A stretch of DNA of 64,000 bases from Mycolicibacter minnesotensis (lineage in GTDB: Bacteria > Actinomycetota > Actinomycetes > Mycobacteriales > Mycobacteriaceae): the NCBI RefSeq assembly GCF_010731755.1, contig NZ_AP022589.1, positions 744,001 through 808,000 of the forward strand. The letters run 5' to 3'. Of the stretch, positions 35,763 through 53,520 are shown one piece after another. Within the stretch, counting starts at the first letter, position 1. Each line of letters opens with the position of its first letter. A model generated the notes under the pieces. The model was not told the DNA's origin. It made no database searches and saw only the letters and a program-made list of their open reading frames with translations. Made by a program: the position numbers and the translations under genes.

Positions 35763-36164
35763 CCGGCCATAGAGCCCGTCGAGATCAACGCCGGCCCGTG
35801 GTATCTGCGGATGCCACGGGCCGACGATCGGGTCGATGACCGCCCCAGCCTGGCCGACCTCGGTGAGTCCGATCCGGACTACGTCGCCAGGGCGGCAACC
35901 GGTTGGGCCGAGGACACGCGCTATCTGTGGGCGGTCTGCGAGCCTACGACCGGTGAACTACTAGCCGAAGTGGCACTGAATCCAGGTTCGGGTGAGATCG
36001 GCATTCGTCACCGGCCAGGTCACGACCAGGCAGGCCAAACCGGGGCGCAAGCAGTGTTTCGATTCGCCGCCGCAGCGTTAGGTCTGGCCCCGGCGACGGC
36101 CCTCGCGGATAGTCCGGCGGCGGCCGACGAAAAGCCAGACGACGCCGCCGACCGCCAGGGCTAG
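35763..36164 (+). pseudogene. Relic of a GNAT-type acetyltransferase
   Basis: Directly after the accA3 TAA the same frame stays open for 133 codons. Its first part, EINAGPWYLR...RADDRVDD then YVARAATGW, resembles the N-terminal half of a GNAT (RimL-like) protein, but there is no start codon before ATG 35811, which falls inside the first strand. The acetyl-CoA binding second half is missing, and the last about 29 codons read through the antisense gene at 36078. It looks like a decayed gene that lost its start and its C-terminal domain. A short protein from ATG 35811 cannot be excluded. Confidence 0.45.
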
Positions 36165-36353
36165 GACCGAAATCCCAAAGCCCAGCGTCCAGCCGGCATC
36201 GTGCTGCGCCGCGGCACTCATGAAGCCCACCAACGCCAAGGTCGCCATCACCAGCATGGCCAACCCCGGCAGTTCCCGGCGGTCCTTGAACACCAATCCG
36301 GCGCGCGGTTGGGTCGTTCGCCTGCGATCGATTCCCTCATCGGTATCGCTCAT
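36078..36353 (-). CDS. Two-helix membrane protein, probable SigF target
   Basis: A 91-residue protein: acidic/basic N-terminus (MSDTDEGIDRRR), two membrane helices (about 38-57 and 64-83) and a basic cytoplasmic tail (GRRRTIREGRRRG). No family is recognised. The ATG at 36353 was chosen because a clean SigF-type promoter begins 12 bases upstream, which the longer frame would overlap. It is the first gene of the block inserted between accA3 and sigF. Confidence 0.65.
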   Translation of the reverse strand: MSDTDEGIDRRRTTQPRAGLVFKDRRELPGLAMLVMATLALVGFMSAAAQHDAGWTLGFGISVLALAVGGVVWLFVGRRRTIREGRRRGQT

Positions 36354-36364
36354 GGGAGTTCGGG

Positions 36365-36390
36365 TACCCGCGACGCTGTTTCGCAAAACC
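36365..36390 (-). promoter_or_regulatory. SigF-type promoter (perfect)
   Basis: Read on the minus strand: GGTTT, 16 bases, GGGTA (-35 at 36390-36386, -10 at 36369-36365). It lies in the 46-base gap before the membrane-protein ATG at 36353. Both elements match the mycobacterial SigF consensus. Confidence 0.75.
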
Positions 36391-36399
36391 CCAGCATCG

Positions 36400-37389
36400 C
36401 TATGCCGCTGCGTCTCGCAGCGCCGCCAACAGCGGCTCCGCAGCCTCCTTGAGGAACGCCTCCTGCGTATCTCCCCCGATCTGAATCAGGGCGATGTCGG
36501 TGAATCCCGCATCGCGGTAGGCGCCCACCGCATTGACGATCGCACTCAGATCCGGGCCACAGGCTATGGCGTCGGCGACGTCGCGTGGCTGCACGAAGCG
36601 GGTGGCAGCCGCGAATGCAGTCGGTGTCGGCAACTCGGCGTTGACCGACCAGCCGCCGCCGAACCAGCGGAACTGTCGGTGGGCGCGTTGGATCGCCGTG
36701 TCACGGTCGGGGTCCCAACTCACCGGTAGCTGTCCGATGACGCGGCCTCCCTCGGCCAACCCTGCCGCCCGGCGGGCGGCGTGCCACGACTGAACCAGGT
36801 CGCGGTCGGGCTGGACCGCGATCAGATGGTCCGTGGCGGCGGCAAATCTGTCGACCCCCTCGTCCCCCGACATGGCCACGGCCAGCGCGACCGGTATGTC
36901 GGGGAGGTCCCACAGCCGTGCCTGGTCGACCTGAAAGTACTCGCCGTCGTGGTCGACCGTCTCACCCATCAACAGCTCCCGGATGATCTTGATGGCCTCA
37001 CTGAGCATGGCTTGCCGGCGTCGGGCATTCGGCCAACCCGCACCTGTGACGATGTGCTCGTTGAGGTTCTCCCCACTGCCCAGCCCCAAGGTGAATCGCC
37101 CCTCGGCAAGAATCTGCAGGGTCGCCGCCTGCTGCGCCACCACCGCGGGGTGGTAGCGCATGGTCGGGCAGGTCACGTAGCTGTACAGGTCGATGTCGGC
37201 AGTGGCGTACGCAACCGCGCCCAGCACCGTAGCCGCGTGGGGTGCGTGGCCCTGCGAGGTCAACCACGGCGAGAAGTGATCGCTACACACCGCAAAGTCG
37301 AAGCCGCGCTCCTCGGCGGCAATGGCGTGGCGGACAAGTTCGGTGGGCCCACTCTGTTCGGTCATGAGGGTGTAGCCAAAGCGTGTCAT
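36400..37389 (-). CDS. F420-dependent LLM-class oxidoreductase (G6PDH-like)
   Basis: A 329-residue TIM-barrel enzyme of the luciferase-like monooxygenase group, in the TIGR03557 (F420, glucose-6-phosphate dehydrogenase-like) branch. Marks: ERGFDFAVCSDHFSPW, TCPTMRYHPAVVAQQAATL and the GLGSGENLNEHIVTGAGWPN loop (split in two: GLGSGENLNEH, IVTGAGWPN). Coenzyme F420 use is inferred from the family; the substrate is unknown. ATG 37389 begins MTRFGYTLM. The frame runs far upstream only as shadow. A SigF-type promoter precedes it and another points away to the next gene. Confidence 0.84.
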   Translation of the reverse strand: MTRFGYTLMTEQSGPTELVRHAIAAEERGFDFAVCSDHFSPWLTSQGHAPHAATVLGAVAYATADIDLYSYVTCPTMRYHPAVVAQQAATLQILAEGRFTLGLGSGENLNEHIVTGAGWPNARRRQAMLSEAIKIIRELLMGETVDHDGEYFQVDQARLWDLPDIPVALAVAMSGDEGVDRFAAATDHLIAVQPDRDLVQSWHAARRAAGLAEGGRVIGQLPVSWDPDRDTAIQRAHRQFRWFGGGWSVNAELPTPTAFAAATRFVQPRDVADAIACGPDLSAIVNAVGAYRDAGFTDIALIQIGGDTQEAFLKEAAEPLLAALRDAAA

Positions 37390-37400
37390 GGCAGCGTGGG

Positions 37401-37424
37401 TACCCATCGGTCCATCGGCGAAAC
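37401..37424 (-). promoter_or_regulatory. SigF-type promoter for the LLM oxidoreductase
   Basis: Minus strand: GTTT (37424-37421), 15 bases, GGGTA (37405-37401), starting 12 bases upstream of the ATG. The base before GTTT is C rather than G. Confidence 0.65.
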
Positions 37425-37435
37425 GATGCGCCACC

Positions 37436-37461
37436 GTTTGGCGCGGGCCCCGCGCGGGGTA
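37436..37461 (+). promoter_or_regulatory. SigF-type promoter for the haem-oxygenase-like gene
   Basis: GTTT (37436-37439), 17 bases, GGGTA (37457-37461), nine bases before the GTG at 37471. It faces away from the promoter of the divergent LLM gene, so one 80-base gap carries two SigF-like promoters. Confidence 0.65.
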
Positions 37462-37470
37462 ACCGCAGAC

Positions 37471-38478
37471 GTGACCATCGCAGCGATCACCACCGAACCC
37501 CGCCTGCCCGTCGCCTGCGGCCCGTTGTCGGCGGCGGTCTGCGGGTTGCTGACCCTGCCCCCCGGAGCAGCCCCCGAGACCCTGCCTCCGATCGCCGGTG
37601 CCGACCCCTACGGTCGCGACCTGCAATTGGCGCTGTACGTCTGCTACGAGCTGCACTACCGCGGTTTCGCCGGGGTGGATCCGGACTGGGAATGGGACGT
37701 CGCACTGTTGGCGCTGCGCGCGCACCTGGAGAGGGCATTCCTCGACCGCGTCCGCCAGGACGTCGGGGAAACACCGCCGTCGTGGTCGGCGAACGACGAA
37801 ATGAACGCTGCAGCCACCGAGCCGGTGCAAGGCACGGGGCCCTCGTGGCACCTGCGGGATCACGGCACCTGGGGCCAGGCCCGCGAGTACTTCGTCCACA
37901 GGTCGCTGTATCACCTCAAAGAGGGCGACCCGCACGCCTGGATCATCCCGCGCCTGACCGGCCAGGCCAAGGCCTCCTTTGTCGCGGTCGAGTTCGATGA
38001 GTATGGCGCCGGACGGGGGCCGAAGGCGCACCAGCAACTGTTCGCCGACCTGCTCACCGCCGCCGGCCTGGATGCCGACTACCTCGCGTACCTGGACATC
38101 GTTCCGGCCGAGTCGCTGGCAGTGGTCAACCTGATGTCGCTGTTCGGACTGCACCGCCGCTGGCGGGGCGCGGCCGCCGGGCACTTCGCCGCCACCGAGA
38201 TCACTTCCCCGCCCGGCTCCAGCCGACTGGTCACCGCGCTGCGGCGGATGGGCGCGCCGGATCCATGTGTCACCTTCTATGCCGAGCACGTCGAGGCCGA
38301 CGCGGTGCATGAACAGGTGGTGCGCACCGACGTCATCGGCGACCTACTGCACCACTGTCCGCATTTGGAGACCGATGTCGTGTTCGGTATGCGTGCTCAC
38401 GCCGCGGTGGAGAATCGGCTTGCCGAACTGATGACATCCGCCTGGTCGGCGGGCCGCTCGTCGTTAGTCCCGCTGTGA
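37471..38478 (+). CDS. Iron-containing haem-oxygenase-like redox enzyme
   Basis: A 335-residue all-helical protein of the haem-oxygenase-like family (iron-containing redox enzyme, PF14518-type). Possible metal ligands appear in YFVHRSLYHLKEGDPHAW and VAVEFDEYG, where Glu and His recur at helix spacings typical of the non-haem di-iron fold. Such proteins cleave or oxidise small amines and haem-like ligands; the substrate is unknown. The GTG start gives MTIAAITTEP. It is the second member of a divergent SigF pair. The frame extends further upstream, but that part is shadow. Confidence 0.78.
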   Translation: MTIAAITTEPRLPVACGPLSAAVCGLLTLPPGAAPETLPPIAGADPYGRDLQLALYVCYELHYRGFAGVDPDWEWDVALLALRAHLERAFLDRVRQDVGETPPSWSANDEMNAAATEPVQGTGPSWHLRDHGTWGQAREYFVHRSLYHLKEGDPHAWIIPRLTGQAKASFVAVEFDEYGAGRGPKAHQQLFADLLTAAGLDADYLAYLDIVPAESLAVVNLMSLFGLHRRWRGAAAGHFAATEITSPPGSSRLVTALRRMGAPDPCVTFYAEHVEADAVHEQVVRTDVIGDLLHHCPHLETDVVFGMRAHAAVENRLAELMTSAWSAGRSSLVPL

Positions 38479-38667: not shown

Positions 38668-39105
38668 ATGACGAGTAGCAGAATCGCCGAGATCGCTTTC
38701 GCCACACCTGCAACCGAAGCCACCCAGGCTTGGCGCAGCCATACCGCCAAGTTCACCGTCCACTGGGGGCGGGCCGGAGCGGTGGTCTCGGTCGATGGAG
38801 AGATAGACGCCGCCAACGCGAGCGCATTCGCCGACTATGCCAAACAGTGCGCCGACTGCTGCGAGTGGCTGGTGGTAGATTTGTCGCAGCTGACTTTCAT
38901 TGGTACCGAAGGGTTTTCTGCCCTCCAATCGGTCAGCGCGCAGTGCGCCAGTACACAGACGCAGCTCAAGGTGGTTCCCAGTAGCGCACTACGAACCCTG
39001 CTGCGGATCTGCGACCCGCAGTCGCGGCTTCCGCTGGTGGGATCACTGTCGGATGCCCTAGCTGACGTGCAGCGGATCAGCCGGCCGCTTCGCCTGGTGC
39101 CCTGA
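38668..39105 (+). CDS. STAS-domain anti-sigma factor antagonist, paralogue 1
   Basis: A 145-residue protein with a STAS fold from about residue 28. It aligns with SpoIIAA/RsbV in VVDLSQLTFIG-TEGFSAL. The usual phospho-acceptor motif Asp-Ser-(Ser/Thr)-Gly is here Gly-Thr-Glu-Gly: the Asp is Gly, the acceptor Ser is Thr, and the following residue is Glu. Ser-to-Thr may still be phosphorylated; loss of the Asp would weaken it. About half the residues match the second STAS gene at 45441. It lies in the island with sigF and two RsbW-like proteins, so binding an anti-sigma factor is a fair inference. Confidence 0.8.
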   Translation: MTSSRIAEIAFATPATEATQAWRSHTAKFTVHWGRAGAVVSVDGEIDAANASAFADYAKQCADCCEWLVVDLSQLTFIGTEGFSALQSVSAQCASTQTQLKVVPSSALRTLLRICDPQSRLPLVGSLSDALADVQRISRPLRLVP

Positions 39106-39201: not shown

Positions 39202-39544
39202 CTAGCGTCCCCGGACCCGGCGGTTGTACTTCTTGATAGCTGTCACCAGTTCGGCTTTGCGCATCGAGCGCCCGTGGATGTCGAGCCGGCGCGCAATATC
39301 CAGCAGGTGCTGTTTACTGGCGTTGGCGTCGACCCCTTCCGCGGAGGGGCCGGTGTTGTTCGGGCCGCCGCCCGCCGCGCTTATCCGACGGGCCGCGCTT
39401 GGCCTTCGCCTCCCAGTGGTCGCCGACTTTCTCGAAACTGTGCTTCAGCGCGGCGTAGGCCACCTGAGCTTTGGCGCTGGAACGTTGCAGCGTGGTGGGC
39501 AGCTCGGTCCACTTGGGGGTGCCGCTCTTCGACATCTTGGGCAT
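39202..39544 (-). pseudogene. ChaB/Rho-N protein with frameshift and internal loss
   Basis: The frame from ATG 39544 encodes MPKMSKSGTPKWTELP and KHSFEKVGDHWEAKAKRGPSD, the ChaB-type domain seen in mycobacteria (second item split: KHSFEKVGDHW, EAKAKRGPSD). Two faults are visible. The segment after LQRSSAKAQ is about 23 residues shorter than in its relatives. A one-base shift in a GC run near 39370-39400 then puts the rest, GVDANASKQHLLDIARRL...AELVTAIKKYNRR, in another frame. The total of 343 bases is not a multiple of three. A sequencing error could explain the shift but not the deletion. Neighbouring mycobacterial chaB genes are often SigF-controlled. Confidence 0.6.
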
Positions 39545-39579
39545 GAGGCCTCCTCGTGAACATCTCGATCGCGTCTGGA

Positions 39580-39605
39580 TACCCGTCCGGAATACCGGCC
39601 AATCC
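39580..39605 (-). promoter_or_regulatory. SigF-like promoter upstream of the ChaB relic
   Basis: Minus strand: GGATT (39605-39601), 16 bases, GGGTA (39584-39580). The -35 has one mismatch to GGTTT. Confidence 0.5.
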
Positions 39606-39648: not shown

Positions 39649-39674
39649 GGTTTCGACTGCGTGCAAAGCGGGAA
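39649..39674 (+). promoter_or_regulatory. SigF-like promoter upstream of the small membrane-protein pair
   Basis: GGTTT (39649-39653), 16 bases, GGGAA (39670-39674); the -10 has A instead of T. It lies 31 bases before the ATG at 39706. Confidence 0.5.
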
Positions 39675-39705
39675 TGAATGCGTTCACAACAAGAATGGAG
39701 GACGC

Positions 39706-39939
39706 ATGCGGATCGGTGGATTGGCCGGGCCCATTGTGCTGCTCTGGTTGGTGATCGGCATTTTCGCCGCGTGGCAGCGCGACTATTTCCACGGAAGCCA
39801 GACCAGCTGCGCCAGTGCCGGAACCATCGCCGTGACCGTTCTGGCCGGCCCGCTGAACTATGCCGGCGTCAAACCCGTCGTATCGGATTGCCATATACCG
39901 CAGCCGTCATCATTGGATGCGGTCGGTTTCATTGTGTGA
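39706..39939 (+). CDS. Small membrane or secreted protein
   Basis: A 77-residue protein with one N-terminal hydrophobic segment (GLAGPIVLLWLVIGIFAAW, about residues 4-22), followed by a Trp-Gln-Arg-Asp stretch and two Cys about 22 residues apart. The ribosome site AATGGAGGACGC precedes the ATG. It reads as a signal-anchored small protein of unknown function and is followed 15 bases later by a DUF6131 gene. The longer frame upstream lacks a ribosome site. Confidence 0.62.
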   Translation: MRIGGLAGPIVLLWLVIGIFAAWQRDYFHGSQTSCASAGTIAVTVLAGPLNYAGVKPVVSDCHIPQPSSLDAVGFIV

Positions 39940-40201: not shown

Positions 40202-41155
40202 ATGGCCGTCCCCACCGGCGACGATCGGGACCCGTTCACGCATATCGCCCTGACGTACGGATCACCGCAGGAATACCTGGATCATCTGGTGCCGTTCGTC
40301 GGCGATGGCGTGAATGACGGCTTTCCGGTCTTGGTCGCGGTCCCGGGCCCCAACCTGTCACTGCTGCGTGACCGCCTGCCCGCGGGCACCGTCGACGCGG
40401 TGAAGCTGGTCGACATGAGCCTGGTCGGACGCAACCCCGGCCACATCCTGGGCGCGGTGTTCGGCACCTTTGCCGCGCGGCACCCGTCGGGCCCGGTGCG
40501 AATGGTCGGCGAGCAAGTCTGGATTGGCCGATCACCGTTGGAGTATTCGGCCTGCCTGCAGCATGAGGCACTGGTCAATGAGGCATTCGCGGGCCGCGAC
40601 ATCGCATTGGTCTGCCCCTACGACGCAACGCATTTGGACTCAGAGACCCTTGCGGACGCAGCGCTCACCCATCCACGAGTGAGCCGGAGCGGACGTCCGG
40701 ATCAGGCCAGCGCCAGCTTCGCTCCAGAAGCCGCCTGGGCACGCTGCAACGAGCCGTTGCCCGGCAACCCCACCGCGGCCAGCTATGCATTGCACCGCCT
40801 CGCAGATCTGGCCGGCGCCCGACAATTCTGCGCCAAGTACGCGCGGTGGTTCGGCTTCTCCGCCGACGGCATCGCAGATCTGCAGCTGATCGTCAATGAG
40901 CTGGCCTCTAACAGCCTGCAGCACGGACGACGGCCGAGCACCCTGTTGTTGTGGGAATCCGCGGGTTACCTGGTCTGCCAGGTACGCGACGCCGGCCAGC
41001 TGACCGACCGACTTGCCGGACGGCGGCCGATCGTGGATGACGTCGATGACGGTCGCGGCCTGTACGTGGTCAATGCCACCGCTGACTTGGTGCGCATCCA
41101 CACCGGGCCATCGGGGACCACGGTGCAGGCACATCTTCGGATGCGCCGGGGCTGA
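40202..41155 (+). CDS. MEDS-domain sensor fused to RsbW-like ATPase
   Basis: A 317-residue protein. Residues about 12-175 match MEDS (methanogen/methylotroph sensory, DcmR-type), a small-ligand sensor. Residues about 195-315 match the RsbW-type ATPase: N-box LQLIVNELASNSLQHG keeps the Glu-x3-Asn pair and VDDGRGLYVV is the G-box. Nothing suggests a His phospho-acceptor, so it is a Ser/Thr kinase or anti-sigma-type switch rather than a histidine kinase. It could act on the STAS proteins or SigF-like partners. GGAGGACAGGGGC precedes the ATG. Its partner is not known. Confidence 0.78.
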   Translation: MAVPTGDDRDPFTHIALTYGSPQEYLDHLVPFVGDGVNDGFPVLVAVPGPNLSLLRDRLPAGTVDAVKLVDMSLVGRNPGHILGAVFGTFAARHPSGPVRMVGEQVWIGRSPLEYSACLQHEALVNEAFAGRDIALVCPYDATHLDSETLADAALTHPRVSRSGRPDQASASFAPEAAWARCNEPLPGNPTAASYALHRLADLAGARQFCAKYARWFGFSADGIADLQLIVNELASNSLQHGRRPSTLLLWESAGYLVCQVRDAGQLTDRLAGRRPIVDDVDDGRGLYVVNATADLVRIHTGPSGTTVQAHLRMRRG

Positions 41156-43289: not shown

Positions 43290-43313
43290 TACCCGCGCCC
43301 GGCAGTGTCAAAC
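43290..43313 (-). promoter_or_regulatory. SigF-type promoter for methyltransferase-CDGSH
   Basis: Minus strand: GTTT (43313-43310), 15 bases, GGGTA (43294-43290). It lies 46 bases upstream of ATG 43243. Confidence 0.65.
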
Positions 43314-43409: not shown

Positions 43410-43889
43410 TCAGGTGTTGCTCGTCCAGACCAGTACATCCTGGACTCCGTCGTTGTAGACCACACCGTCCGGTGCAGGGCCCGTCACGTCGAAGTAGATC
43501 TTGCCGTTCGCGGCCGTACCCTGGGCGATCGGTGCCGGACTGATGCCGTCAGGCGTCGGAACCGTGTTGACCACCCGATATGTGTCACTGTTGGCCGCCC
43601 TGGCGTTGAAATCAGCGACCACCGGCGTCACGGTGCCACTGTCGGCGCGAGCGGTCACGTCGGCCTGATACAGCTTGCCGCGCGGTTGATAACCCGGGAT
43701 GGTGACGTTGGCCGGGCCCAGATTGCTGACCGTGTACGACGTCACCATCGCGCCGTCGTTGAGCTGTGACGGCGTTCCGAACGGCTGAATCGCCGGCTCG
43801 GCGGCCGCGGTGCCGGCGGCAAATACACTCAGCGCAGCGATTCCGGCCGCACCAGCGGCTGCTTTGACCGCAGTTGTGGAGAGCTTCAT
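43410..43889 (-). CDS. mpt63: Secreted immunogenic protein MPT63 homologue
   Basis: A 159-residue secreted protein, identical in length to M. tuberculosis MPT63. The signal peptide runs to about residue 30 (AAGTAAAEP). The mature beta-sandwich keeps VTIPGYQPRGKL, VTPVVADFNARA and GKIYFDVTGPAPDGV, the segments that define the MPT63/MPB63 family. ATG 43889 follows GGAGGAG. The long N-terminal extension possible from 44009 has no signal and overlaps the SigF promoter. Function is unknown; the fold resembles immunoglobulin and arrestin modules. Confidence 0.88.
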   Translation of the reverse strand: MKLSTTAVKAAAGAAGIAALSVFAAGTAAAEPAIQPFGTPSQLNDGAMVTSYTVSNLGPANVTIPGYQPRGKLYQADVTARADSGTVTPVVADFNARAANSDTYRVVNTVPTPDGISPAPIAQGTAANGKIYFDVTGPAPDGVVYNDGVQDVLVWTSNT

Positions 43890-43966: not shown

Positions 43967-43992
43967 TACCCCGTGCGACCGACGGCGAAACC
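43967..43992 (-). promoter_or_regulatory. SigF-type promoter for the MPT63 homologue (perfect)
   Basis: Minus strand: GGTTT (43992-43988), 16 bases, GGGTA (43971-43967), 77 bases upstream of the ATG. Both hexamers match. Confidence 0.75.
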
Positions 43993-44167: not shown

Positions 44168-44836
44168 GTGATCGGGGATGTCAACGCTGAATGTGCGGGA
44201 CCCGCGGGCGGTGAAGCCGAGGTGCACAACGGACTCGACTTGGTGGTCGGTCACGGCGAACCTCAGCGAGTCGGCAGGTTCCGGTACTGGCTCGGCGAAC
44301 AGCGCTGGGAATGGTCGGACACGGTGGCCCGAATGCATGGCTACGAGCCGGGTACCGTTGCACCGAGCACCGAGCTGCTGCTGCAGCACAAGCATCCCGA
44401 AGACCGCCCGCAGGTGGCCGAAGCCCTGGAGCGCGTGCTGCGGGGCGAGCCGTTCAGCAGTCGACACCGGATCATCGACACCGGGGGGCTAGAGCACTGG
44501 GTGATCGTCGTCGGCGACCGAATGCTCGATGACGCCGGAGTGGTCACCGGAACGGCCGGCTTCTACGTCGATGTCACCGATGTGGTGCAGGCCGATGTCA
44601 GCGCAGCGGTATCCGAAGTCGCCGAATCTCGCGCGGTGATCGAACAGGCCAAGGGAGTCCTGATGGTCGGCTACGGCATCTCCGCCGAACGGGCGTTCGA
44701 CATCCTGGTGTGGCGTTCGCAGGAGACCAACGTCAAGGTACGCGACTTGGCCACTCGATTCGTGGCTGCCTTCACCGGCAGACTCCCCGCCGAAGTGCTC
44801 TCCGACCTCGACCACACCCTGCTGACCGTGACCTGA
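44168..44836 (+). CDS. PAS-ANTAR signalling protein (RNA-binding antiterminator type)
   Basis: A 222-residue protein with a PAS fold in the first two thirds (FRYWLGEQRWEWSD, HKHPEDRPQVAEAL, WVIVVGDRMLDDAG) and an ANTAR RNA-binding domain at the end (ESRAVIEQAKGVLMVGYG, ERAFDILVWRSQETNVKVRDLA). ANTAR proteins bind paired hexaloop hairpins and prevent transcription termination. The PAS input could sense haem, flavin or redox state. GTG 44168 is used with AAGGCGG ahead; a GTG at about 44147 is possible. Candidate target hairpins were not identified. Confidence 0.83.
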   Translation: MIGDVNAECAGPAGGEAEVHNGLDLVVGHGEPQRVGRFRYWLGEQRWEWSDTVARMHGYEPGTVAPSTELLLQHKHPEDRPQVAEALERVLRGEPFSSRHRIIDTGGLEHWVIVVGDRMLDDAGVVTGTAGFYVDVTDVVQADVSAAVSEVAESRAVIEQAKGVLMVGYGISAERAFDILVWRSQETNVKVRDLATRFVAAFTGRLPAEVLSDLDHTLLTVT

Positions 44837-46609: not shown

Positions 46610-46635
46610 TGCCCGCGCCGACGGCGGCTCAAACC
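46610..46635 (-). promoter_or_regulatory. SigF-like promoter for cutinase 1
   Basis: Minus strand: GGTTT (46635-46631), 16 bases, GGGCA (46614-46610). The -10 has C instead of T at position four. Confidence 0.5.
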
Positions 46636-46696: not shown

Positions 46697-46852
46697 TCAG
46701 TACCAGTAGCGTCTGCCTCCCACCGGCCGGCCGAGAGCGCCCAACAGCCAGAACACCGCGCCGACCACCAGCAAGACTATGCCAACCGCCCACAGGACGT
46801 AGATGTTGAAGACCATGCCCACTATCAGCAGCACAAGTCCGACGCCGATCAT
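46697..46852 (-). CDS. DUF6131 small membrane protein, paralogue 2
   Basis: 51 residues with the same two-helix layout as the protein at 39955 and the same end (GRPVGGRRYWY). The first helix (GVGLVLLIVGMVFNIYVLW) and the second (GIVLLVVGAVFWLLGALG) fill most of the chain. It is too short for automated calls but both copies share length, ends and a SigF-like promoter, so it is a real gene. Its function is unknown; by its small size it may be a membrane stress peptide. Confidence 0.75.
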   Translation of the reverse strand: MIGVGLVLLIVGMVFNIYVLWAVGIVLLVVGAVFWLLGALGRPVGGRRYWY

Positions 46853-46930
46853 GAGCCACACCCCAGGATCGCGTCGGCGTCGGCGGCCGCCGACGTGTCA
46901 TCACACAGCATTTGTTCCATCACAGCGTGA

Positions 46931-46956
46931 TACCCGAGAGACCGGGGGGCAAAACC
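46931..46956 (-). promoter_or_regulatory. SigF-type promoter for DUF6131 paralogue 2 (perfect)
   Basis: Minus strand: GGTTT (46956-46952), 16 bases, GGGTA (46935-46931), followed by TC. About 78 bases ahead of the start at 46852. Confidence 0.75.
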
Positions 46957-47398: not shown

Positions 47399-47424
47399 GG
47401 TTTGCCAGCGGACTGCAACGGGTA
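47399..47424 (+). promoter_or_regulatory. SigF-type promoter for cutinase 2 (perfect)
   Basis: GGTTT (47399-47403), 16 bases, GGGTA (47420-47424), then TC. The ATG is 18 bases downstream. Confidence 0.78.
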
Positions 47425-47441
47425 TCAATCGTCTCGTTGTG

Positions 47442-48116
47442 ATGAGTCAGATCCTTACCGTGGTGGCCGTGTCGGGCGGCGCGCTGTTGTTCACGTCGGC
47501 GAGTGGCGACGCGGTCGCCGCTGGGTGCGCCGACATCGCGGTGGTGTTTGCGCGCGGCACCGGGGAAGCCCCCGGCGTCGGTTGGATGGGCCAGCAGTTC
47601 ATCGACGCGCTGCGATGGCGCACCTGGGGGCGCGCACTGGATGTCTACCCAGTGGACTTTCCCGCCGTGCCCGAGTTCGAGCCCTCGGCCGCCGGTATCG
47701 CCAACGCCGCCGCTCACCTCCGCGATCTCTACACCAGGTGTCCCGGTACCCAGCTCATCGTCGGCGGGTACTCGCGTGGTGCGGCACTGATCGGATATGT
47801 GACCGATCCGGCATCGGCCGGCAAGTTCGGAGCCTCCCTGCCTCCCGAGGCTGCCAGTCACGTCGCCGCCGTGGCCTTACTGGGCAGACCGTCCGCAGCG
47901 TTCTTGTACTCAATCGGGGCCCCACCGCTGTCCATCGGACCGAGCTACGCCGCCAAGACCATCGACTTGTGCGCGCTCGGCGATCCTGTCTGCTCGGCGG
48001 GCGACAATGGAGCCGCGCATACCGCGTACGCCGCAAATGGCATGACCGCTGAGGCCGCAGACTTTGCCGTCGACCACCTGAGGCCACTTGAAGCCGTTCC
48101 GGGGCAGCCGCTCTAG
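47442..48116 (+). CDS. Secreted cutinase-like serine esterase 2
   Basis: A 224-residue protein with a signal peptide to about residue 27 (GDAVAAG). Nucleophile Ser111 is in GYSRG rather than the usual GYSQG; Asp181 (ALGDPVC) and His193 (AAHTAY) complete the triad. Disulfide candidates are Cys29-Cys100 and Cys177-Cys184. About 30-35% of positions match the neighbouring cutinase by eye, so the two are distant paralogues. It starts right after a perfect SigF promoter. An in-frame GTG just ahead of the ATG may be the real start. Confidence 0.86.
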   Translation: MSQILTVVAVSGGALLFTSASGDAVAAGCADIAVVFARGTGEAPGVGWMGQQFIDALRWRTWGRALDVYPVDFPAVPEFEPSAAGIANAAAHLRDLYTRCPGTQLIVGGYSRGAALIGYVTDPASAGKFGASLPPEAASHVAAVALLGRPSAAFLYSIGAPPLSIGPSYAAKTIDLCALGDPVCSAGDNGAAHTAYAANGMTAEAADFAVDHLRPLEAVPGQPL

Positions 48117-48178: not shown

Positions 48179-48202
48179 GTTTCGGTCCTTCCCCGCGGGG
48201 TA
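48179..48202 (+). promoter_or_regulatory. SigF-type promoter for the FAD-Rieske gene
   Basis: GTTT (48179-48182), 15 bases, GGGTA (48198-48202), 12 bases before the ATG at 48214. Base before GTTT is C. Confidence 0.65.
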
Positions 48203-48213: not shown

Positions 48214-49719
48214 ATGACGTCGCTATGGCTCGCCAACAGGATTGAAACGTCGCCGGATTCGGGCAGAGCTGAGGATCTGCCCGAGCATGCCGACGTGGTG
48301 GTGGCGGGCGCCGGCATTACCGGCCTGATGACCGCGCTGCTGCTGGCGCGAGCGGGCCGCCAGGTGCTGGTGTTGGAAGCCCGCACGGTTGGCGCCTGCG
48401 CGACCGGAAACACCACCGCCAAGATCAGCCTGCTGCAAGCCACCCAGCTCTCGAAGATCTTGGCCAAGCAGGGCAAGGACCTGGCGGCCGGATACCTGGC
48501 CGGCAATCGCGCCGGACAAGACTGGCTGCTGGCGTTCTGCGCCGCCTCCGGGGTGCCGGTCCAGCGCGAAGACGCTTACAGCTTCGCCCAGTCCGAGCAC
48601 GGGGTGGCCGCAGCCCGCGCCGAGTTCGAAGCCTGCCGTGCGCTTGGGCTGCAAGCTACGTGGGAAGCACACGCCGACACGCCATTTGATTACCACGGCG
48701 GGGTCCGGCTTGAAGAACAAGCGCAGTTCGATCCGATGCTCTTTCTCGACGCGCTCCGCGCCGAGCTATGCGCGAGCGGCGGACAACTGCTGGAACACAC
48801 ACGCGTGCAGCATGTTTCCAGCAGGCACCGCATCCTTCGCCTACGCCTCGACACGCCCCGTGGGCATGCCGAACTGCGGGCCGCTCAGCTGGTGCTGGCC
48901 ACCGGAGTCCCGGTACTGGACCGTGGTGGATACTTCGCCCGAGTCAAACCCAGCCGCTCATACTGCATGGCATTCGAGGTACCCGGCGACATCACCCGGC
49001 CGATGATGATCTCCACCGATTCACCGACCCGGTCATTGCGCTACGCCCCGGCCAACGGATCGCGGCTACTGCTGGTCGGTGGGGCCGGGCACACCGTAGG
49101 CCGCGAGAAGCACCCGGGCGAAGCACTGGCAGAACTGGAGTCGTGGACCGTCAGGCACTACCCGGGAGCGGTCCGAACGCACCTGTGGTCGGCGCAGGAC
49201 TATGCCTCTGTAGACGAGCTTCCCTACGTGGGAACTCTCCTTCCTGATAGCGAGACCATCTATGTGGCAACTGGTTTCAACAAATGGGGTATGACGAATG
49301 GGGCGGCCGCGGCACTGGCGTTGTCGGGCCGTATCCTCGGTGCGCGACCAGATTGGGACCGAGCGTTTACGACCTGGCGAACCGGCGAGCTGCGCGGCCT
49401 GCCCGCGGCCATGGCCGCCAATCTGGCGGTCGGATTCCACCTGGCGAAAGGCTGGATCACCCCGACAGCCCGCCTGGGCCGGGGCCGCTACGGAAATGAT
49501 GGCGGCGTGGTCAGCGGACCACCCTGGCACCTACAGGCTCAGTGCCAGGTGGACGGGGTCGAGCACCGGCTCTCCCCGGTCTGCCCCCACCTTGGCGGCA
49601 TCGTCACCTGGAATGAGGTCGACCGGGCCTGGGAATGCCCGCTGCACGGTTCGCGCTTCGCTCCCGACGGCAGCGTGTTGGAAGGTCCGGCCACCCGCGG
49701 CCTGACCGCCGACAACTGA
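48214..49719 (+). CDS. FAD-dependent oxidoreductase with C-terminal Rieske domain
   Basis: A 501-residue DadA-type flavoprotein. The dinucleotide motif is VVAGAGITGLMTALLLARAG (about residue 31); the FAD-loop signatures GNTTAKISLLQ and the late GGAGHTVGREK follow. At the C-terminus a Rieske centre CPHLGG...CPLHGS binds a [2Fe-2S] cluster, so electrons probably pass from FAD to the cluster or the reverse. Similar fusions occur in Actinobacteria; the substrate is unknown (glycine- or amine-like compounds are suggested by the fold). Its stop lies four bases from the convergent sigF stop. Confidence 0.85.
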   Translation: MTSLWLANRIETSPDSGRAEDLPEHADVVVAGAGITGLMTALLLARAGRQVLVLEARTVGACATGNTTAKISLLQATQLSKILAKQGKDLAAGYLAGNRAGQDWLLAFCAASGVPVQREDAYSFAQSEHGVAAARAEFEACRALGLQATWEAHADTPFDYHGGVRLEEQAQFDPMLFLDALRAELCASGGQLLEHTRVQHVSSRHRILRLRLDTPRGHAELRAAQLVLATGVPVLDRGGYFARVKPSRSYCMAFEVPGDITRPMMISTDSPTRSLRYAPANGSRLLLVGGAGHTVGREKHPGEALAELESWTVRHYPGAVRTHLWSAQDYASVDELPYVGTLLPDSETIYVATGFNKWGMTNGAAAALALSGRILGARPDWDRAFTTWRTGELRGLPAAMAANLAVGFHLAKGWITPTARLGRGRYGNDGGVVSGPPWHLQAQCQVDGVEHRLSPVCPHLGGIVTWNEVDRAWECPLHGSRFAPDGSVLEGPATRGLTADN

Positions 49720-49723
49720 GTGG

Positions 49724-50515
49724 CTACTGCAACTGATCGCGAAGCTTGCCTAGAGATCTGGCCAGCAGTCGGGACACGTGCATCTGTGAGATTCCGACCC
49801 GGTCGGCGATCTGCGTCTGAGTCATCGACTCGAAAAACCGCAATACCAGCACCGTGCGTTCACGCTCCGGCAGTGCCTCCAGCAGCGGCCGCAACGCCTC
49901 GCGGTCCTCGATCCGGTCCATCCGGGCGTCGACATCGCCGAGTGTGTCAGCAATCGAGCGGGCGTCGTCTTCATCCGAGCCTCCGCCGCCGCCGTCGATC
50001 GACAGCGTGTTGTAGGAACTCCCCGCTACGAGCCCTTCGACCACCTCGTCTCGGCTCAACTCGAGTTCAGTGGCGAGCTCGGAGGCGGTGGGCGCCCGCC
50101 CCAGGCGCTGCGAGAGTTCAGCGGTAGCGACACCCAGGCGCAGGTGCAGCTCTTTGAGCCGTCGGGGCACCTTGACCGACCAGCTGTTGTCGCGGAAGTG
50201 GCGGCGGACCTCGCCCATGATCGTCGGGACCGCGAATGAGACGAAGTCGGAGCCGGTTTCGACGTCAAAACGTGTGACGGCGTTGACCAGGCCCACGCGC
50301 GCCACCTGGACCAGATCGTCACGCTGCTCTCCGCGCCCCTCGAACCGGCGCGCGATGTGGTCGGCCAGCGGGAGACACCGCTCCACGATCTTGTCCTTGC
50401 GGTTTCGGAAGTCGGCCGAATCGATGTCGTACTCGGCGAGCTCACGAAACATATCGCCGACGTCGGCGTACTCCGATCCGGACTGTGAGCCGCTGCGCGC
50501 GGCGCGCGGGCTCAC
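49724..50515 (-). CDS. sigF: Stress sigma factor SigF
   Basis: A 263-residue group-3 sigma factor (M. tuberculosis SigF: 261). Region 2 has LVQVARVGLVNAVTRFD and FVSFAVPTIMGEVRRHFRD; region 4 contains RTVLVLRFFESMTQTQIADRVG with ISQMHVSRLL. It directs transcription from GTTT/GGGTA promoters, many of which lie in this window. GTG overlaps the rsbW stop (GTGA), coupling synthesis of sigma factor and its antagonist. A long glycine/aspartate-rich insert between regions 3 and 4 (SIDGGGGGSDEDD) is visible. Confidence 0.96.
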   Translation of the reverse strand: MSPRAARSGSQSGSEYADVGDMFRELAEYDIDSADFRNRKDKIVERCLPLADHIARRFEGRGEQRDDLVQVARVGLVNAVTRFDVETGSDFVSFAVPTIMGEVRRHFRDNSWSVKVPRRLKELHLRLGVATAELSQRLGRAPTASELATELELSRDEVVEGLVAGSSYNTLSIDGGGGGSDEDDARSIADTLGDVDARMDRIEDREALRPLLEALPERERTVLVLRFFESMTQTQIADRVGISQMHVSRLLARSLGKLRDQLQ

Positions 50516-50949
50516 CGCCCGGAGTCCGCCCGGCGGGTTGTCAACGTGACACCGAATACCTCACCCGGACTGTCGGTTTCCTGCCCCTCACGGAACGCCT
50601 GCACGTCATCGACCAGCGCAGTGAGCACGTGCCAGCTGAAGCTGCCCGGAACCAGCACACCAGCCGCGGTACCGGCTGCCGACGCCTGGATCGTCACGTG
50701 GTCGTCGTGCGGATCGATGACGACCGTCAGCATCGCGCCCGGTGCGGCGGCGCGAATCAGCTGTGTGCACAGTTCGTCGATCGCCAGCCGCAGGTCCGCG
50801 ACGGTGTCGACATCCAGATCCTCATACGTGGCCACAGCACCCACCAGCATGCGGATCACCGCGAGGCTTTCCAGTCTGGGCGTCACCCGCAGTTCGACGG
50901 CCCGTTCGCTGCAGGCGCGCTGCGCCCGATCACTGTCAATATCGGTCAT
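50512..50949 (-). CDS. rsbW: Anti-sigma factor RsbW/UsfX (SigF antagonist)
   Basis: A 145-residue HATPase-type anti-sigma factor, the same length as M. tuberculosis UsfX. The N-box is LRLAIDELCTQLIR, where the usual second Asn is absent in this branch, and the G-box region is SFSWHVLTALVDDV. It binds SigF and blocks it; release is expected via STAS antagonists such as the two encoded in this region. GGGAGGC precedes the ATG. It forms an overlapping operon with sigF and sits behind a candidate SigF promoter. Confidence 0.93.
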   Translation of the reverse strand: MTDIDSDRAQRACSERAVELRVTPRLESLAVIRMLVGAVATYEDLDVDTVADLRLAIDELCTQLIRAAAPGAMLTVVIDPHDDHVTIQASAAGTAAGVLVPGSFSWHVLTALVDDVQAFREGQETDSPGEVFGVTLTTRRADSGR

Positions 50950-51101
50950 GAAGCCTCCCGGCGAAATCGGACCGAGACTACTGCTGCGCGTCACTCGACT
51001 GCCCACCACCCTCGGATCCAGGCATCCTGACGCATTCCGCCCTCAGCCGACGACGTCACCATGGCACGCCGGCTGCCTCGAGATCAGTCATGGCACGTCT
51101 G

Positions 51102-51127
51102 TACCCACTCACCGGTGAACTCAATCA
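51102..51127 (-). promoter_or_regulatory. SigF-like autoregulatory promoter for rsbW-sigF
   Basis: Minus strand: TGATT (51127-51123), 16 bases, GGGTA (51106-51102). The -10 is exact, the -35 is weak (three of five). The position, about 150 bases upstream of rsbW, fits the known self-activation of the operon. Confidence 0.5.
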
Positions 51128-51153
51128 CCGGATTGGTACCTGAGTCACAGCAC

Positions 51154-51179
51154 GGCCCGGCCGGAAGTCCGGCCGGGCC
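51154..51179. terminator. GC hairpin downstream of usfY
   Basis: A perfect 12-bp inverted repeat GGCCCGGCCGGA (51154-51165) with its complement 51168-51179, loop of about two to four bases, 17 bases past the usfY stop. It separates usfY from the rsbW-sigF promoter. Confidence 0.7.
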
Positions 51180-51195
51180 GGCGTGACCCCTCGGG

Positions 51196-51507: not shown

Positions 51508-51621
51508 GGCACCCCACCTCCTTCCGCACGCGACGGCAATTTTGGAACCTACGACCCATCGTATGCCGATATGTCGGCCCGGCGCCGGTTTGGCGGATAT
51601 TCGCAGGGCCTCACCGCGAAG

Positions 51622-52011: not shown

Positions 52012-52061
52012 CGTCCGCGCTGATGAAGTCTGCGTCAAGGCGATTCGACGCCGGGATCAAC

Positions 52062-52086
52062 GTTTGGGCGCTCGACGGTCCGGGAA
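52062..52086 (+). promoter_or_regulatory. SigF-like promoter for the 36-residue gene
   Basis: GTTT (52062-52065), 16 bases, GGGAA (52082-52086), about 62 bases before the ATG; -10 has A instead of T. Confidence 0.45.
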
Positions 52087-52147
52087 GCCTTGCCGTTGTG
52101 ACGGCTCTCGACCTCACGGGTCTGTCACATCCACGAAGGGAGGACCG

Positions 52148-52258
52148 ATGTCCGACGAGGGCGAGGCGGAGCGCGACGCCGCCAAGCATCAGGCCGAGGC
52201 CGAATCGGCCCGGGCGGCCGCCAAGGCGGCCGAGGCGCGCGAGCAGTCTCACCAGTAG
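52148..52258 (+). CDS. 36-residue charged helical peptide
   Basis: ATG follows GGGAGGACCG, a good ribosome site. The peptide is rich in Ala, Glu and Arg, with repeats of the type E-A-E-S-A-R-A-A-A-K-A-A-E-A-R that would form one amphipathic helix; no hydrophobic segment. Size and composition resemble small stress peptides of other bacteria. It is too short for domain calls. Ends 100 bases before the GlnR-like gene, which has its own candidate promoter. Confidence 0.5.
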   Translation: MSDEGEAERDAAKHQAEAESARAAAKAAEAREQSHQ

Positions 52259-52286
52259 CCCGCGGGCCTGTCGCTACCGTGCACCC

Positions 52287-52311
52287 GGTTACATCCGGAG
52301 CACATCGGGTA
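52287..52311 (+). promoter_or_regulatory. SigF-like promoter for the GlnR-like regulator
   Basis: GGTTA (52287-52291), 15 bases, GGGTA (52307-52311), about 46 bases before the ATG. One -35 mismatch. Confidence 0.55.
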
Positions 52312-52357
52312 CTAAAAGTGTTGAGAGGGAAACGTATCCACGGTTTGGAGCCAGGCG

Positions 52358-53032
52358 ATGGAGATCCTGTTACTGACCGACAGCGGCGAGTTCGCCAGAT
52401 CGCTGTCTGGTCTGCGCGCATTCAGACATTCGATCGCCCGCGGTACGTTGGCCATCAATACGCGCGCCGACTGCCAGGTAGCCGAGGCTGTTCTGGTGGA
52501 TGGCACCTGCGACGAGTCCACTGCGCGCGAGAGTTGCCGCAGGCTCGGCGCCTGGGCTCCCTCGGCCGTCGTGCTGGCCGTCGTGGCCGCCGAAGAATTT
52601 GCCGCGGTCGGCCTCGGCTGGCATGTCGATGACGTCCTTGTCGCAACCGCCGGCCCAGCCGAGGCGAATGCCAGACTGGAGTTGGCCCTGGCACGCCGGC
52701 GCGAATTCGATCCCAACACAGTGCAGTTCGGCGCTCTGGTGATTCGCCCTGACAGCTTCACCGCGTCGCTGTCGGATCGAGATCTTGATCTGACCCTCAC
52801 CGAGTTCAAGCTTCTTCACCACCTGGTGCGCCATGCAGGCCAGGCGTGCAGCCGGACACGGCTGCTTCAGGAGCTCTGGGCCGGTAAAGGCAACCGACGC
52901 AAGGTCGACGTCCACGTGCAGCGGTTACGCGCCAAACTCGGCAGCGAGTACGAGTCGATGGTCGATACCGTTCGCGGGGTCGGCTACATGGCTCCGCGGC
53001 CGCCGCAGACGCAGTGGGCCATCGCCAACTGA
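52358..53032 (+). CDS. GlnR-like orphan response regulator
   Basis: A 224-residue regulator. The receiver resembles actinobacterial GlnR in its opening EILLLTDSGEF and its LVDGTCDE loop but lacks the Asp-Asp pair that chelates Mg, so phosphorylation is unlikely. The winged-helix domain has LTLTEFKLLHHLVRHAGQ and KVDVHVQRLRAKLG, like GlnR and Rv0818. GlnR controls nitrogen genes; this may be a diverged paralogue with other targets. No sensor kinase is next to it. GGAGCCAGGCG precedes the ATG. Confidence 0.8.
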   Translation: MEILLLTDSGEFARSLSGLRAFRHSIARGTLAINTRADCQVAEAVLVDGTCDESTARESCRRLGAWAPSAVVLAVVAAEEFAAVGLGWHVDDVLVATAGPAEANARLELALARRREFDPNTVQFGALVIRPDSFTASLSDRDLDLTLTEFKLLHHLVRHAGQACSRTRLLQELWAGKGNRRKVDVHVQRLRAKLGSEYESMVDTVRGVGYMAPRPPQTQWAIAN

Positions 53033-53037
53033 CCGGG

Positions 53038-53430
53038 TCACAACACCACGAACACGATCAACAGCAGATCGGCTGCGAGCAATATCCAGCCACCGATCCA
53101 CACCAGGAATCCGAGACGGTGTGTGGCGAAGAAGAAGGCCAGAAGAAACGTCAGCGCGGCGATCACCGGCGCAGCGTGGAACAGCAGGCCGAACGACGTC
53201 CCGCCCATTCCGGGGCCCAGGCAAGACGACCTTGCGCATGCGCTGGCACCCGAGGCCCGGGCCAGCGCGAACGTCATCGTCAGCACTGCTGCCGGAGCTG
53301 TCAGCAGCGACAATGTCCAGTTGATCCACGTCCAATCACGAGCCGGTTTCTCCAGGACGGCCGGCACTGCGGCGCCCGGCCCCGCGTCGGAGAAGATCGG
53401 CCCCATTGTGCGCACGCCGTGATTCACCAT
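53038..53430 (-). CDS. Three-helix membrane protein, probable SigF target
   Basis: About 130 residues with three membrane helices: INWTLSLLTAPAAVLTMTFAL, FHAAPVIAALTFLLAFFFA and FLVWIGGWILLAADLLLIVF (first two shown near 19-21 residues; the third 20). The C-terminal helix pair repeats in the 41-residue protein at 47017. Start at ATG 53430 with a candidate SigF promoter ten bases ahead, or a few codons later. Function is unknown. It is tail-to-tail with the GlnR-like gene (five-base gap). Confidence 0.6.
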   Translation of the reverse strand: MVNHGVRTMGPIFSDAGPGAAVPAVLEKPARDWTWINWTLSLLTAPAAVLTMTFALARASGASACARSSCLGPGMGGTSFGLLFHAAPVIAALTFLLAFFFATHRLGFLVWIGGWILLAADLLLIVFVVL

Positions 53431-53439
53431 GACCCTCAA

Positions 53440-53466
53440 TTCCCCCGGGAAGCAGGCCGCCAAACC
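53440..53466 (-). promoter_or_regulatory. SigF-like promoter before the three-helix protein
   Basis: Minus strand: GGTTT (53466-53462), 17 bases, GGGAA (53444-53440). The -10 has A for T and lies nine bases from the ATG, so the transcript may be nearly leaderless. Confidence 0.45.
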
Positions 53467-53520
53467 CGCAGCCGGCGGCCACCGCCCCCACGCCGGCGGC
53501 GAAATTGGCACCATGGCTAG

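What the first reader, a model, noticed from the sequence alone, without database searches (positions are those of the whole stretch)
35763..53520. A SigF regulon gathered around sigF
Fifteen sites resembling the SigF promoter (GTTT or GGTTT, 15-17 bases, GGGTA) lie in front of genes over about 17 kb: 36365-36390, 37401-37424, 37436-37461, 39580-39605, 39649-39674, 43290-43313, 43967-43992, 46610-46635, 46931-46956, 47399-47424, 48179-48202, 51102-51127, 52062-52086, 52287-52311 and 53440-53466. Nine have exact GTTT and GGGTA elements and the others have one or two mismatches. They precede lipases, redox enzymes, an MPT63 homologue and small membrane proteins. The established part is the SigF consensus; that all are used is inference. 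A sigma factor surrounded by its own targets is not the arrangement in M. tuberculosis, where accA3 is next to sigF.
Basis: partly seen in the sequence, partly recalled or inferred. Interest (0 to 1): 0.85.

Follow-up and report, generated by a model that had tools for sequence, protein, structure and literature searches.

The report
Stress-sigma-factor gene amid its targets
In this mycobacterium and its close relatives, many genes that look switched on by the stress regulator SigF sit together in one block around the sigF gene, although several of them lie scattered in other mycobacteria; their on-switch sequences are conserved between species, but whether the switches are used was not measured here.

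Summary
Exact boxes (GTTT-N15-17-GGGTA) number 28 in the 4.22-Mb genome; 8 lie in the 17.8-kb accA3–lhr interval (0.12 expected). A 300-kb sample of the same genome has none. Each of the 15 listed sites has a counterpart before the orthologous gene in at least some other Mycolicibacter genomes. Over 14 sites, box bases are 86% identical, spacers 51%. So this is very probably a real cluster of SigF promoters, including one before rsbW–sigF; use was not measured.

The kind is not new: M. smegmatis has a published run of SigF-dependent genes beside sigF. What differs: in Mycolicibacter the block lies mainly between sigF and accA3 (9.5–58 kb in nine genomes) and holds homologues of some genes that carry SigF boxes at scattered loci in M. 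litorale. Outside the block 8 of 20 exact boxes sit within 150 bp of a gene start, so roughly half of the plausible exact SigF promoters occupy 0.42% of the chromosome. How and why they gathered is open. Verdict: new variant of a known kind, worth an expression test.

The parts
33948..35762 (+). accA3, left border of the island; no SigF box upstream
36078..36296 (-). small membrane protein (start uncertain), SigF target
   Evidence: box 36365-36389; exact N16 in 7 of 8 genomes, this one included
36365..36389 (-). SigF box, exact, N16
36400..37389 (-). luciferase-like (LLM) oxidoreductase; F420 dependence recalled, not tested
   Evidence: PF00296 E 1e-44; ATG 11 bp after the box
37401..37424 (-). 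SigF box, exact, N15
   Evidence: exact in 8 of 8 genomes
37436..37461 (+). SigF box, exact, N17
   Evidence: exact in 7 of 8 genomes, one mismatch in the eighth
37462..38478 (+). iron-containing redox enzyme (Haem_oxygenas_2); start codon not fixed
   Evidence: PF14518 E 4.6e-58
38668..39105 (+). STAS protein, RsfA-like; no SigF box
   Evidence: PF01740; aligned with STAS genes next to sigF in five other mycobacteria
39314..39544 (-). ChaB-like remnant, broken relative to relatives
   Evidence: PF06150 below cut-off; search reports one stop inside the match
39580..39604 (-). SigF box, GATT-N16-GGGTA, before the chaB-like gene
   Evidence: GATT or GGTT-N16-GGGTA in 7 of 8 genomes
39650..39674 (+). 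SigF box, GTTT-N16-GGGAA
   Evidence: same in 9 of 9 genomes
39706..39939 (+). small protein, cluster cl14 (start uncertain)
   Evidence: homologue with SigF box in M. litorale (L159)
40202..41155 (+). MEDS sensor + HATPase_c_2 (RsbW-like); no conserved SigF box
   Evidence: PF14417, PF13581
41409..41876 (-). Hsp20; no SigF box
   Evidence: PF00011
41956..42327 (+). MerR-family regulator; no SigF box
   Evidence: PF13411
42548..43243 (-). methyltransferase, SigF target (start inferred from relatives)
   Evidence: PF05175; exact box upstream in 6 of 8 genomes
43290..43313 (-). SigF box, exact, N15
43410..43889 (-). MPT63/DUF1942 secreted protein, SigF target
   Evidence: PF09167 E 3.7e-54
43967..43991 (-). 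SigF box, exact, N16
   Evidence: exact in 7 of 7 genomes
44168..44836 (+). PAS-ANTAR regulator; no SigF box
   Evidence: PF08447, PF03861
45441..45875 (+). second RsfA-like STAS protein (start uncertain); no SigF box
   Evidence: PF01740
45897..46598 (-). cutinase 1, SigF target
   Evidence: PF01083
46610..46634 (-). SigF box, GTTT-N16-GGGCA
   Evidence: same in the 7 genomes whose hit is 75% identical or more; the other 2 hits (41-44%) are taken as the paralogue cutinase 2
46697..46861 (-). small membrane protein DUF6131, SigF target
   Evidence: PF19626
46931..46955 (-). SigF box, exact, N16
   Evidence: exact box before this gene in 4 of 9 genomes
47400..47424 (+). SigF box, exact, N16
   Evidence: exact in 9 of 9 genomes
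47439..48116 (+). cutinase 2, SigF target
   Evidence: PF01083
48179..48202 (+). SigF box, exact, N15
   Evidence: exact in 5 of 5 genomes that have the gene
48223..49719 (+). FAD oxidoreductase with Rieske domain, SigF target (start uncertain)
   Evidence: PF01266, PF00355
49724..50515 (-). sigF
   Evidence: Sigma70 regions 2, 3, 4; 97% to M. arupensis
50512..50979 (-). rsbW/usfX anti-sigma factor, overlaps the sigF start (own start uncertain)
   Evidence: PF13581; hit in 80 of 80 loci
51102..51126 (-). SigF box before rsbW-sigF, GATT-N16-GGGTA (autoregulation inferred)
   Evidence: GATT or GGTT-N16-GGGTA in 9 of 9 genomes
52062..52086 (+). SigF box, GTTT-N16-GGGAA, before a CsbD gene cut to 36 aa here (52148-52258)
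   Evidence: GTTT...GGGAA, N16 or N17, before the CsbD gene in the 7 relatives that have it
52287..52311 (+). SigF box, GGTT-N16-GGGTA
   Evidence: GGTT or GATT-N16-GGGTA in 8 of 8 genomes
52358..53032 (+). GlnR-like OmpR-family regulator, SigF target
   Evidence: PF21695, PF00486
53038..53430 (-). small membrane protein, SigF target
53440..53465 (-). SigF box, one mismatch (N17 GGGAA or N16 GGGGA)
   Evidence: exact box before the orthologue in G075, G076, G077, G078; none at the weaker hits (42-50%) in four other genomes
53521..57981 (+). lhr-type helicase (name recalled), right border; no conserved SigF box

Best explanation
The accA3-lhr interval of this Mycolicibacter genome is a SigF regulon island. 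SigF, held by RsbW until stress frees it, recognises about 14-15 promoters (GTTT-N15-17-GGGTA and near variants) before separate genes on both strands: redox enzymes, an MPT63-type secreted protein, two cutinases, a methyltransferase, small membrane proteins, a GlnR-like regulator, and rsbW-sigF itself, which gives autoregulation. Two RsfA-like STAS proteins and a MEDS-HATPase protein in the island, without conserved SigF boxes, are likely inputs to the switch. The island is a shortened, collinear form of a longer one (25-65 kb in six of the other eight genomes read) found in Mycolicibacter; part of its content corresponds to genes that stand alone at distant loci, under their own SigF boxes, in other mycobacteria. 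Shown: box enrichment, position before genes, conservation, collinearity, scattered homologues. Inferred: promoter use, autoregulation, roles of STAS and MEDS proteins, direction of the change, and whether genes moved or were replaced by newly acquired copies.
For: Enrichment: 8 of 28 exact boxes in 0.42% of the genome; a second complete Mycolicibacter genome, G071, 11 of 28 in 36.9 kb. Nine islands: 95 exact boxes in 347.5 kb against 1, 2, 3, 3 and 6 for five scrambled patterns. Of 95 boxes, 92 had a called downstream gene and 74 of these lie 10-150 bp before its start. Footprint over 14 sites: box columns 710/828 identical, spacer 752/1466, flank 1754/3265; each of the 15 sites has counterparts. 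One SigF-type protein reaches E 1e-40 in this genome. Scattered homologues: in M. litorale F4, SigF-boxed loci at 1.79, 1.85, 3.92 and 5.51 Mb carry homologues of ChaB, cl14+DUF6131, hemerythrin 1, and LLM+Mn-catalase+hemerythrin 2. Best LLM hit lies in the island in 5 of 5 Mycolicibacter genomes and far from sigF in G029, G062, G067. By description, MPT63, Mn-catalase and a hemerythrin are SigF-dependent at scattered M. smegmatis loci. Gene order is collinear in the three genomes printed; the tree separates Mycolicibacter from five other mycobacteria.
Against: No transcript data for Mycolicibacter. SigF boxes also cluster by sigF, more weakly, in other mycobacteria (6 of 61 in G029, 5 of 48 in G062). 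Box conservation before the methyltransferase, DUF6131 and rightmost membrane-protein genes is patchy. Eight island genes have no conserved box. G083 has only 4 exact boxes in 12.4 kb. The LLM gene of the islands (70-74% to M. litorale) is no closer to it than copies in other genera (up to 76%) while other mycobacteria have 78-88%, so replacement from outside is not excluded. MPT63 has paralogues elsewhere in Mycolicibacter and only 51% best identity outside the clade, so its move is not shown. Polarity rests on one family in draft genomes.
Confidence: 0.85

Rival explanations
1. The boxes are real SigF promoters, but their closeness to sigF has no function: accA3-lhr is a stretch that tolerates insertions and rearrangements, and dispensable stress genes pile up there.
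For: Interval length varies from 12 to 65 kb; in G077 recombinase pairs, an rve integrase, an MMPL and an AMP-binding gene lie in it; genes without SigF boxes also reside there; other mycobacteria hold extra genes on the lhr side.
Against: Boxes (up to one mismatch) are 7 times denser than in the genome sample; some of the genes carry SigF boxes at scattered sites in M. litorale; gene order is kept.
Confidence: 0.4
2. The island, or much of it, came by horizontal transfer from outside the mycobacteria.
For: 62 of 69 other loci have accA3 within 0.9-8.9 kb of sigF, so the long block is special to this clade. Island LLM proteins are no closer to the M. litorale copy (70-74%) than those of other genera (up to 76%), whereas other mycobacteria show 78-88%.
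Against: Island G+C 0.65-0.685 is ordinary next to 0.676 for the window; Mn-catalase and ChaB are 77% identical to M. litorale, though other genera were not searched for these.
Confidence: 0.1
3. The boxes are read by another sigma factor, or by several.
For: Promoter use was not measured; one-mismatch boxes are not enriched genome-wide.
Against: The consensus is that published for mycobacterial SigF and the genome has one SigF-type protein at E 1e-40.
Confidence: 0.05
4. Chance or base composition.
For: One-mismatch N16 matches genome-wide are no more than the reversed control; the 20 exact boxes outside the island are not far above the control's 14.
Against: Exact-box enrichment in the island, 0 in a 300-kb sample, and conservation of the elements over the spacer.
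Confidence: 0.01

Closest known systems
M. smegmatis sigF-adjacent stress cluster, MSMEG_1766-1804
   Same: Run of SigF-dependent genes, most listed with GTTT/GGGTA-like boxes, beside rsbW-sigF; it includes a methylase and ChaB, and RsfA and RsbW3 lie in it. Called a stress response gene cluster in PMC5445863.
   Different: By locus numbers it precedes rsbW-sigF, on the side away from the acetyl-/propionyl-CoA carboxylase gene MSMEG_1807 (accA3 by recall); here the block lies mainly between sigF and accA3. MPT63, Mn-catalase and hemerythrin genes, scattered there, have namesakes inside Mycolicibacter islands (the last two only in relatives).
M. tuberculosis sigF locus (usfX-sigF)
   Same: rsbW/usfX-sigF pair with a SigF-dependent promoter (PMC7693655 passages).
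   Different: accA3 adjacent to sigF (recalled; fits 62 of 69 relatives); no long block between.
B. subtilis-type SigB/SigF partner-switch loci (recalled)
   Same: Sigma factor with an anti-sigma kinase-fold protein and STAS antagonists in one locus.
   Different: There the locus holds mainly the switch proteins (recalled); here it also holds about a dozen separately promoted target genes.

Membership tests
Mycobacterial SigF promoters | GTTT-like -35, 15-17 bp, GGGTA-like -10, shortly before a start codon | tested here: met
Mycobacterial SigF promoters | elements conserved between species beyond spacer and flank | tested here: met
   0.857 against 0.513 and 0.537 over 14 sites; weak for the methyltransferase, DUF6131 and tm53038 sites
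Mycobacterial SigF regulon | transcription lost in a sigF mutant | not testable with these tools
   no expression data for this genus
Mycobacterial SigF regulon | gene families shared with the M. smegmatis SigF regulon | tested here: inconclusive
   match by description only: MPT63, methylase, ChaB, FAD oxidoreductase, cutinase here; Zn-dehydrogenase, Mn-catalase, hemerythrin in relatives' islands. M. smegmatis sequence was not compared; homology was tested against M. litorale
SigF partner-switching locus | sigF preceded by and overlapping an RsbW-type gene | tested here: met
   50512-50979 and 49724-50515
SigF partner-switching locus | RsfA-like STAS antagonist | tested here: met
   two copies align with the STAS gene next to sigF in five other mycobacteria; function not tested, and the name RsfA is by position and similarity
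M. smegmatis-type sigF-adjacent cluster | targets on the side of rsbW away from accA3 | tested here: not met
   11 of the 15 boxes lie between accA3 and sigF; 51102, 52062, 52287 and 53440 lie on the lhr side
Horizontally acquired genomic island | atypical base composition, tRNA or integrase at the border | tested here: not met
   G+C 0.656; no tRNA in the window; no integrase among the island proteins scanned; integrases seen only in the extra DNA of G077. Origin of single genes stays open

The most novel reading that the evidence does not exclude
In the ancestor of Mycolicibacter a scattered stress regulon was physically collected around its own sigma factor and then kept in order across species while pieces were lost, because closeness to sigF, or inheritance as one block, is selected. 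About half of the plausible exact SigF promoters in this genome are in 0.42% of it.
Probability: 0.35. Interest if true: 0.7.

Novelty: new variant of a known kind. Interest (0 to 1): 0.5.

Why it matters
Large regulons are usually scattered (general knowledge), and whether target genes gain from lying near the gene of their regulator is an old question with few natural test cases. Here one clade has SigF-boxed genes gathered of which several stand apart in related clades, with islands of different length in sister species, so the effect of distance could be compared directly. It also gives a ready list of candidate SigF targets in a little-studied group of mycobacteria.

Tried and rejected
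Chance boxes: rejected by genome and scrambled controls. The control TTTG...GGGTA (37 hits in the islands) was set aside because it overlaps true boxes beginning GTTTG. The exact box at 59174 was rejected as coding. The 52062 site at first looked spurious because no intact gene follows, but it is the box of a CsbD gene truncated in this species. My gene caller missed the LLM gene in this genome and started the overlapping + frame too early; distances for those two boxes come and the ORF list. Of the 20 exact boxes outside the island, 9 fall inside called genes and 8 lie within 150 bp of a start (one box is in both groups); conservation of those was not tested. The arrangement in M. talmoniae (L068) could not be settled because accA3 is on another contig. 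An M. smegmatis sequence was not in hand, so its table was compared by description only.

Literature: Mycolicibacter + SigF gave 6 papers, seen as a listing, none with a title on the sigF locus; the other searches were made; among the titles listed I saw none on this island, but the library lacks most subscription papers. What I saw of papers: PMC4694148 passages and part 1 of 2 of section 9; PMC7693655, PMC10950880, PMC4596819 and PMC11303327 passages; PMC5445863 passages and section 2.7; all others listing only, or recalled.


Full report
WHERE IT IS. The window is bases 744001-808000 of a 4,224,047-base single-contig genome. Its SigF is 97% identical to that of Mycolicibacter arupensis DSM 44942 and 88-95% to ten other loci that I group as Mycolicibacter (L002-L011; one of them is filed as Mycobacterium sp. 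UM_WGJ).

THE BOXES ARE THERE AND CONCENTRATED. All 15 sites are present: 8 exact, 7 with one mismatch. GTTTN{15,17}GGGTA occurs 28 times in the genome, 8 of them in this 17.8 kb; the reversed pattern occurs 14 times genome-wide. Expected 0.12, P 2.8e-13. Fifteen 20-kb samples hold none, against 2, 2, 0, 0, 3 and 7 for six scrambled patterns. With one mismatch allowed the island has 19, the rest of the window 2, the samples 46 in 300 kb. Against this, one-mismatch N16 sites genome-wide (236) do not exceed the control (298), so single imperfect sites need other support.

THEY STAND BEFORE GENES AND ARE CONSERVED. I read the accA3-lhr interval in nine Mycolicibacter genomes (12.4-64.7 kb; in G082 the tile ended before lhr). 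They hold 95 exact boxes in 347,512 bp; five scrambled patterns give 1, 2, 3, 3 and 6, and a sixth, not independent, gives 37. For 92 boxes a downstream gene was called; 74 lie 10-150 bp before its start, 11 closer or overlapping, 7 farther; 3 boxes had no called gene. Spacer length is kept per gene for several: N15 for the LLM gene, N16 for MPT63 and cutinase 2, N15 for the FAD-Rieske gene, N17 for the iron-redox enzyme in 7 of 8. Aligning upstream regions of 14 of the 15 sites, box columns are 710/828 identical to this genome, spacers 752/1466, flanks 1754/3265; the methyltransferase (18/63), DUF6131 (11/45) and rightmost membrane-protein (28/45) sites are weak in that test, although exact boxes precede the methyltransferase in 6 of 8 genomes. 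The fifteenth site (52062) is the box of a CsbD gene, with a like box in the 7 relatives that have the gene, whose coding part is cut to 36 aa here. The box before rsbW-sigF is GATT or GGTT-N16-GGGTA in 9 of 9. accA3, lhr, both STAS genes, MEDS-HATPase, hsp20, merR, PAS-ANTAR and two small genes have no conserved box.

WHAT THE GENES ARE. Targets by Pfam: luciferase-like oxidoreductase, iron-containing redox enzyme, methyltransferase, DUF1942 (MPT63), two cutinases, FAD oxidoreductase with Rieske domain, DUF6131, GlnR-like regulator, a broken ChaB-like gene, and small proteins without Pfam match. Longer islands of relatives add SigF-boxed TPP enzyme, two hemerythrins, DJ-1/PfpI, Zn-dehydrogenase, Mn-catalase and glycosyltransferase. 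Regulators include two RsfA-like STAS proteins and a MEDS-HATPase protein here, and MEDS-STAS, GAF-ANTAR, CheB and CheR-PAS proteins in relatives.

HOW IT PROBABLY WORKS. From M. smegmatis (PMC7693655 passages): RsbW1 holds SigF; RsfA and RsfB free it; RsfA is redox-controlled, RsfB is controlled by phosphorylation; RsbW3, itself SigF-dependent, is proposed to boost the response. By analogy, stress frees SigF here, which fires the island promoters and its own. Which STAS protein acts, and whether MEDS-HATPase behaves like RsbW3, is inference; unlike rsbW3 it has no conserved SigF box.

HOW IT COMPARES. In 62 of 69 non-Mycolicibacter loci accA3 lies 0.9-8.9 kb from sigF; the other 7 show no accA3 in the stretch held, several being short contigs. 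In nine Mycolicibacter genomes the distance is 9.5-58.3 kb; part of the 58 kb in G077 is a mobile insertion. In G029, G062 and G065 the boxes near sigF lie on the other side, toward lhr. Box shares near sigF: G000 8 of 28, G071 11 of 28; G029 6 of 61, G062 5 of 48, G065 3 of 42, G067 1 of 42.

SCATTERED HOMOLOGUES. I fetched 35 stretches covering 37 of the 39 exact boxes of G065 (M. litorale F4 by coordinates and contig length) away from sigF; the two dropped are copies of one repeated sequence. Five of the 35 stretches carry a SigF-boxed homologue of an island gene: ChaB 77%, cl14 67% with DUF6131 75%, hemerythrin 1 59%, a 40% cutinase, and LLM 73% with Mn-catalase 77% and hemerythrin 2 66%; the rest gave no match, or weaker or unboxed ones. 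The LLM gene's best hit is in the island in 5 of 5 Mycolicibacter genomes and far from sigF in G029, G062 and G067. ChaB is in the island in 4 of 4 plus the broken piece here, elsewhere in G029 and G062, absent in G067. The best MPT63 match is in the island in all five, but paralogues (42-48%) lie elsewhere and the best match outside the clade is 51%, so a move is not shown for MPT63.

DIRECTION. In other genera, 14 sampled genomes have both SigF and the LLM gene; in 4 they share a contig, 75-195 kb apart, in 10 they lie on different contigs. So the gathered state looks derived, but draft contigs limit this. A result that cuts the other way: island LLM proteins are 70-74% identical to that of M. 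litorale, copies in other genera up to 76%, other mycobacteria 78-88%; the island copy may therefore be a replacement and not the moved resident gene. Gene order in this genome is a subset, in nearly the same order, of that in G078 and G071. A tree of AccA3, SigF, RsbW and Lhr separates Mycolicibacter from five other mycobacteria and places the short forms (this genome with G075; G083) in two lineages, consistent with losses from a longer island (some inner supports low).

WHAT IS KNOWN. In M. smegmatis 27 genes between MSMEG_1766 and 1804 are listed as reduced in both growth phases in a sigF deletion, most with a box given (PMC4694148 Table 1); PMC5445863 calls MSMEG_1750-1804 a stress response gene cluster and PMC11303327 reports 1766-1806 as its largest cluster of up-regulated genes in another mutant. 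In the same table MPT63 (5617), hemerythrin (6212), Mn-catalase (6213), FAD oxidoreductase (0670) and S-(hydroxymethyl)glutathione dehydrogenase (0671) are SigF-dependent at scattered loci. So the kind is known; the placement and the degree of gathering in Mycolicibacter are what I did not find described.

VERDICT.

Noticed in passing
window 52287-53032: A GlnR-like OmpR-family regulator next to lhr has a SigF-type box conserved in 8 of 8 Mycolicibacter genomes, hinting at a link between SigF and a second regulator.
   Followed up: partly
window 39314-39604 and 52062-52258: chaB-like and csbD genes are decayed in this genome while their SigF boxes persist; relatives have longer copies.
   Followed up: partly
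window 59174-59198: Exact SigF-type box inside a called coding gene; probably chance.
   Followed up: yes
L087-L089 (G077, next to accA3): About 36 kb of extra DNA between accA3 and the first SigF box with two copies of a recombinase pair (three of the four proteins scanned, all Phage_integrase), an rve integrase, an MMPL transporter and an AMP-binding enzyme: a mobile insertion in the island region.
   Followed up: partly
L181 (M. litorale F4, 5.51 Mb): A second small SigF-box cluster: hemerythrin, Mn-catalase and LLM gene with three exact boxes within 2.7 kb; a like triplet of boxes lies near 5.51 Mb in G029.
   Followed up: partly
G010, G040, G059 (another genus): The LLM gene lies 75-87 kb from a SigF homologue in three genomes of one genus, a possible looser neighbourhood.
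   Followed up: no
window 38668-39105 and 45441-45875: Two RsfA-like STAS paralogues with Thr (Ile in one relative) where partner-switch STAS proteins often have a phosphorylated Ser (recalled), in line with the redox control reported for RsfA.
   Followed up: partly
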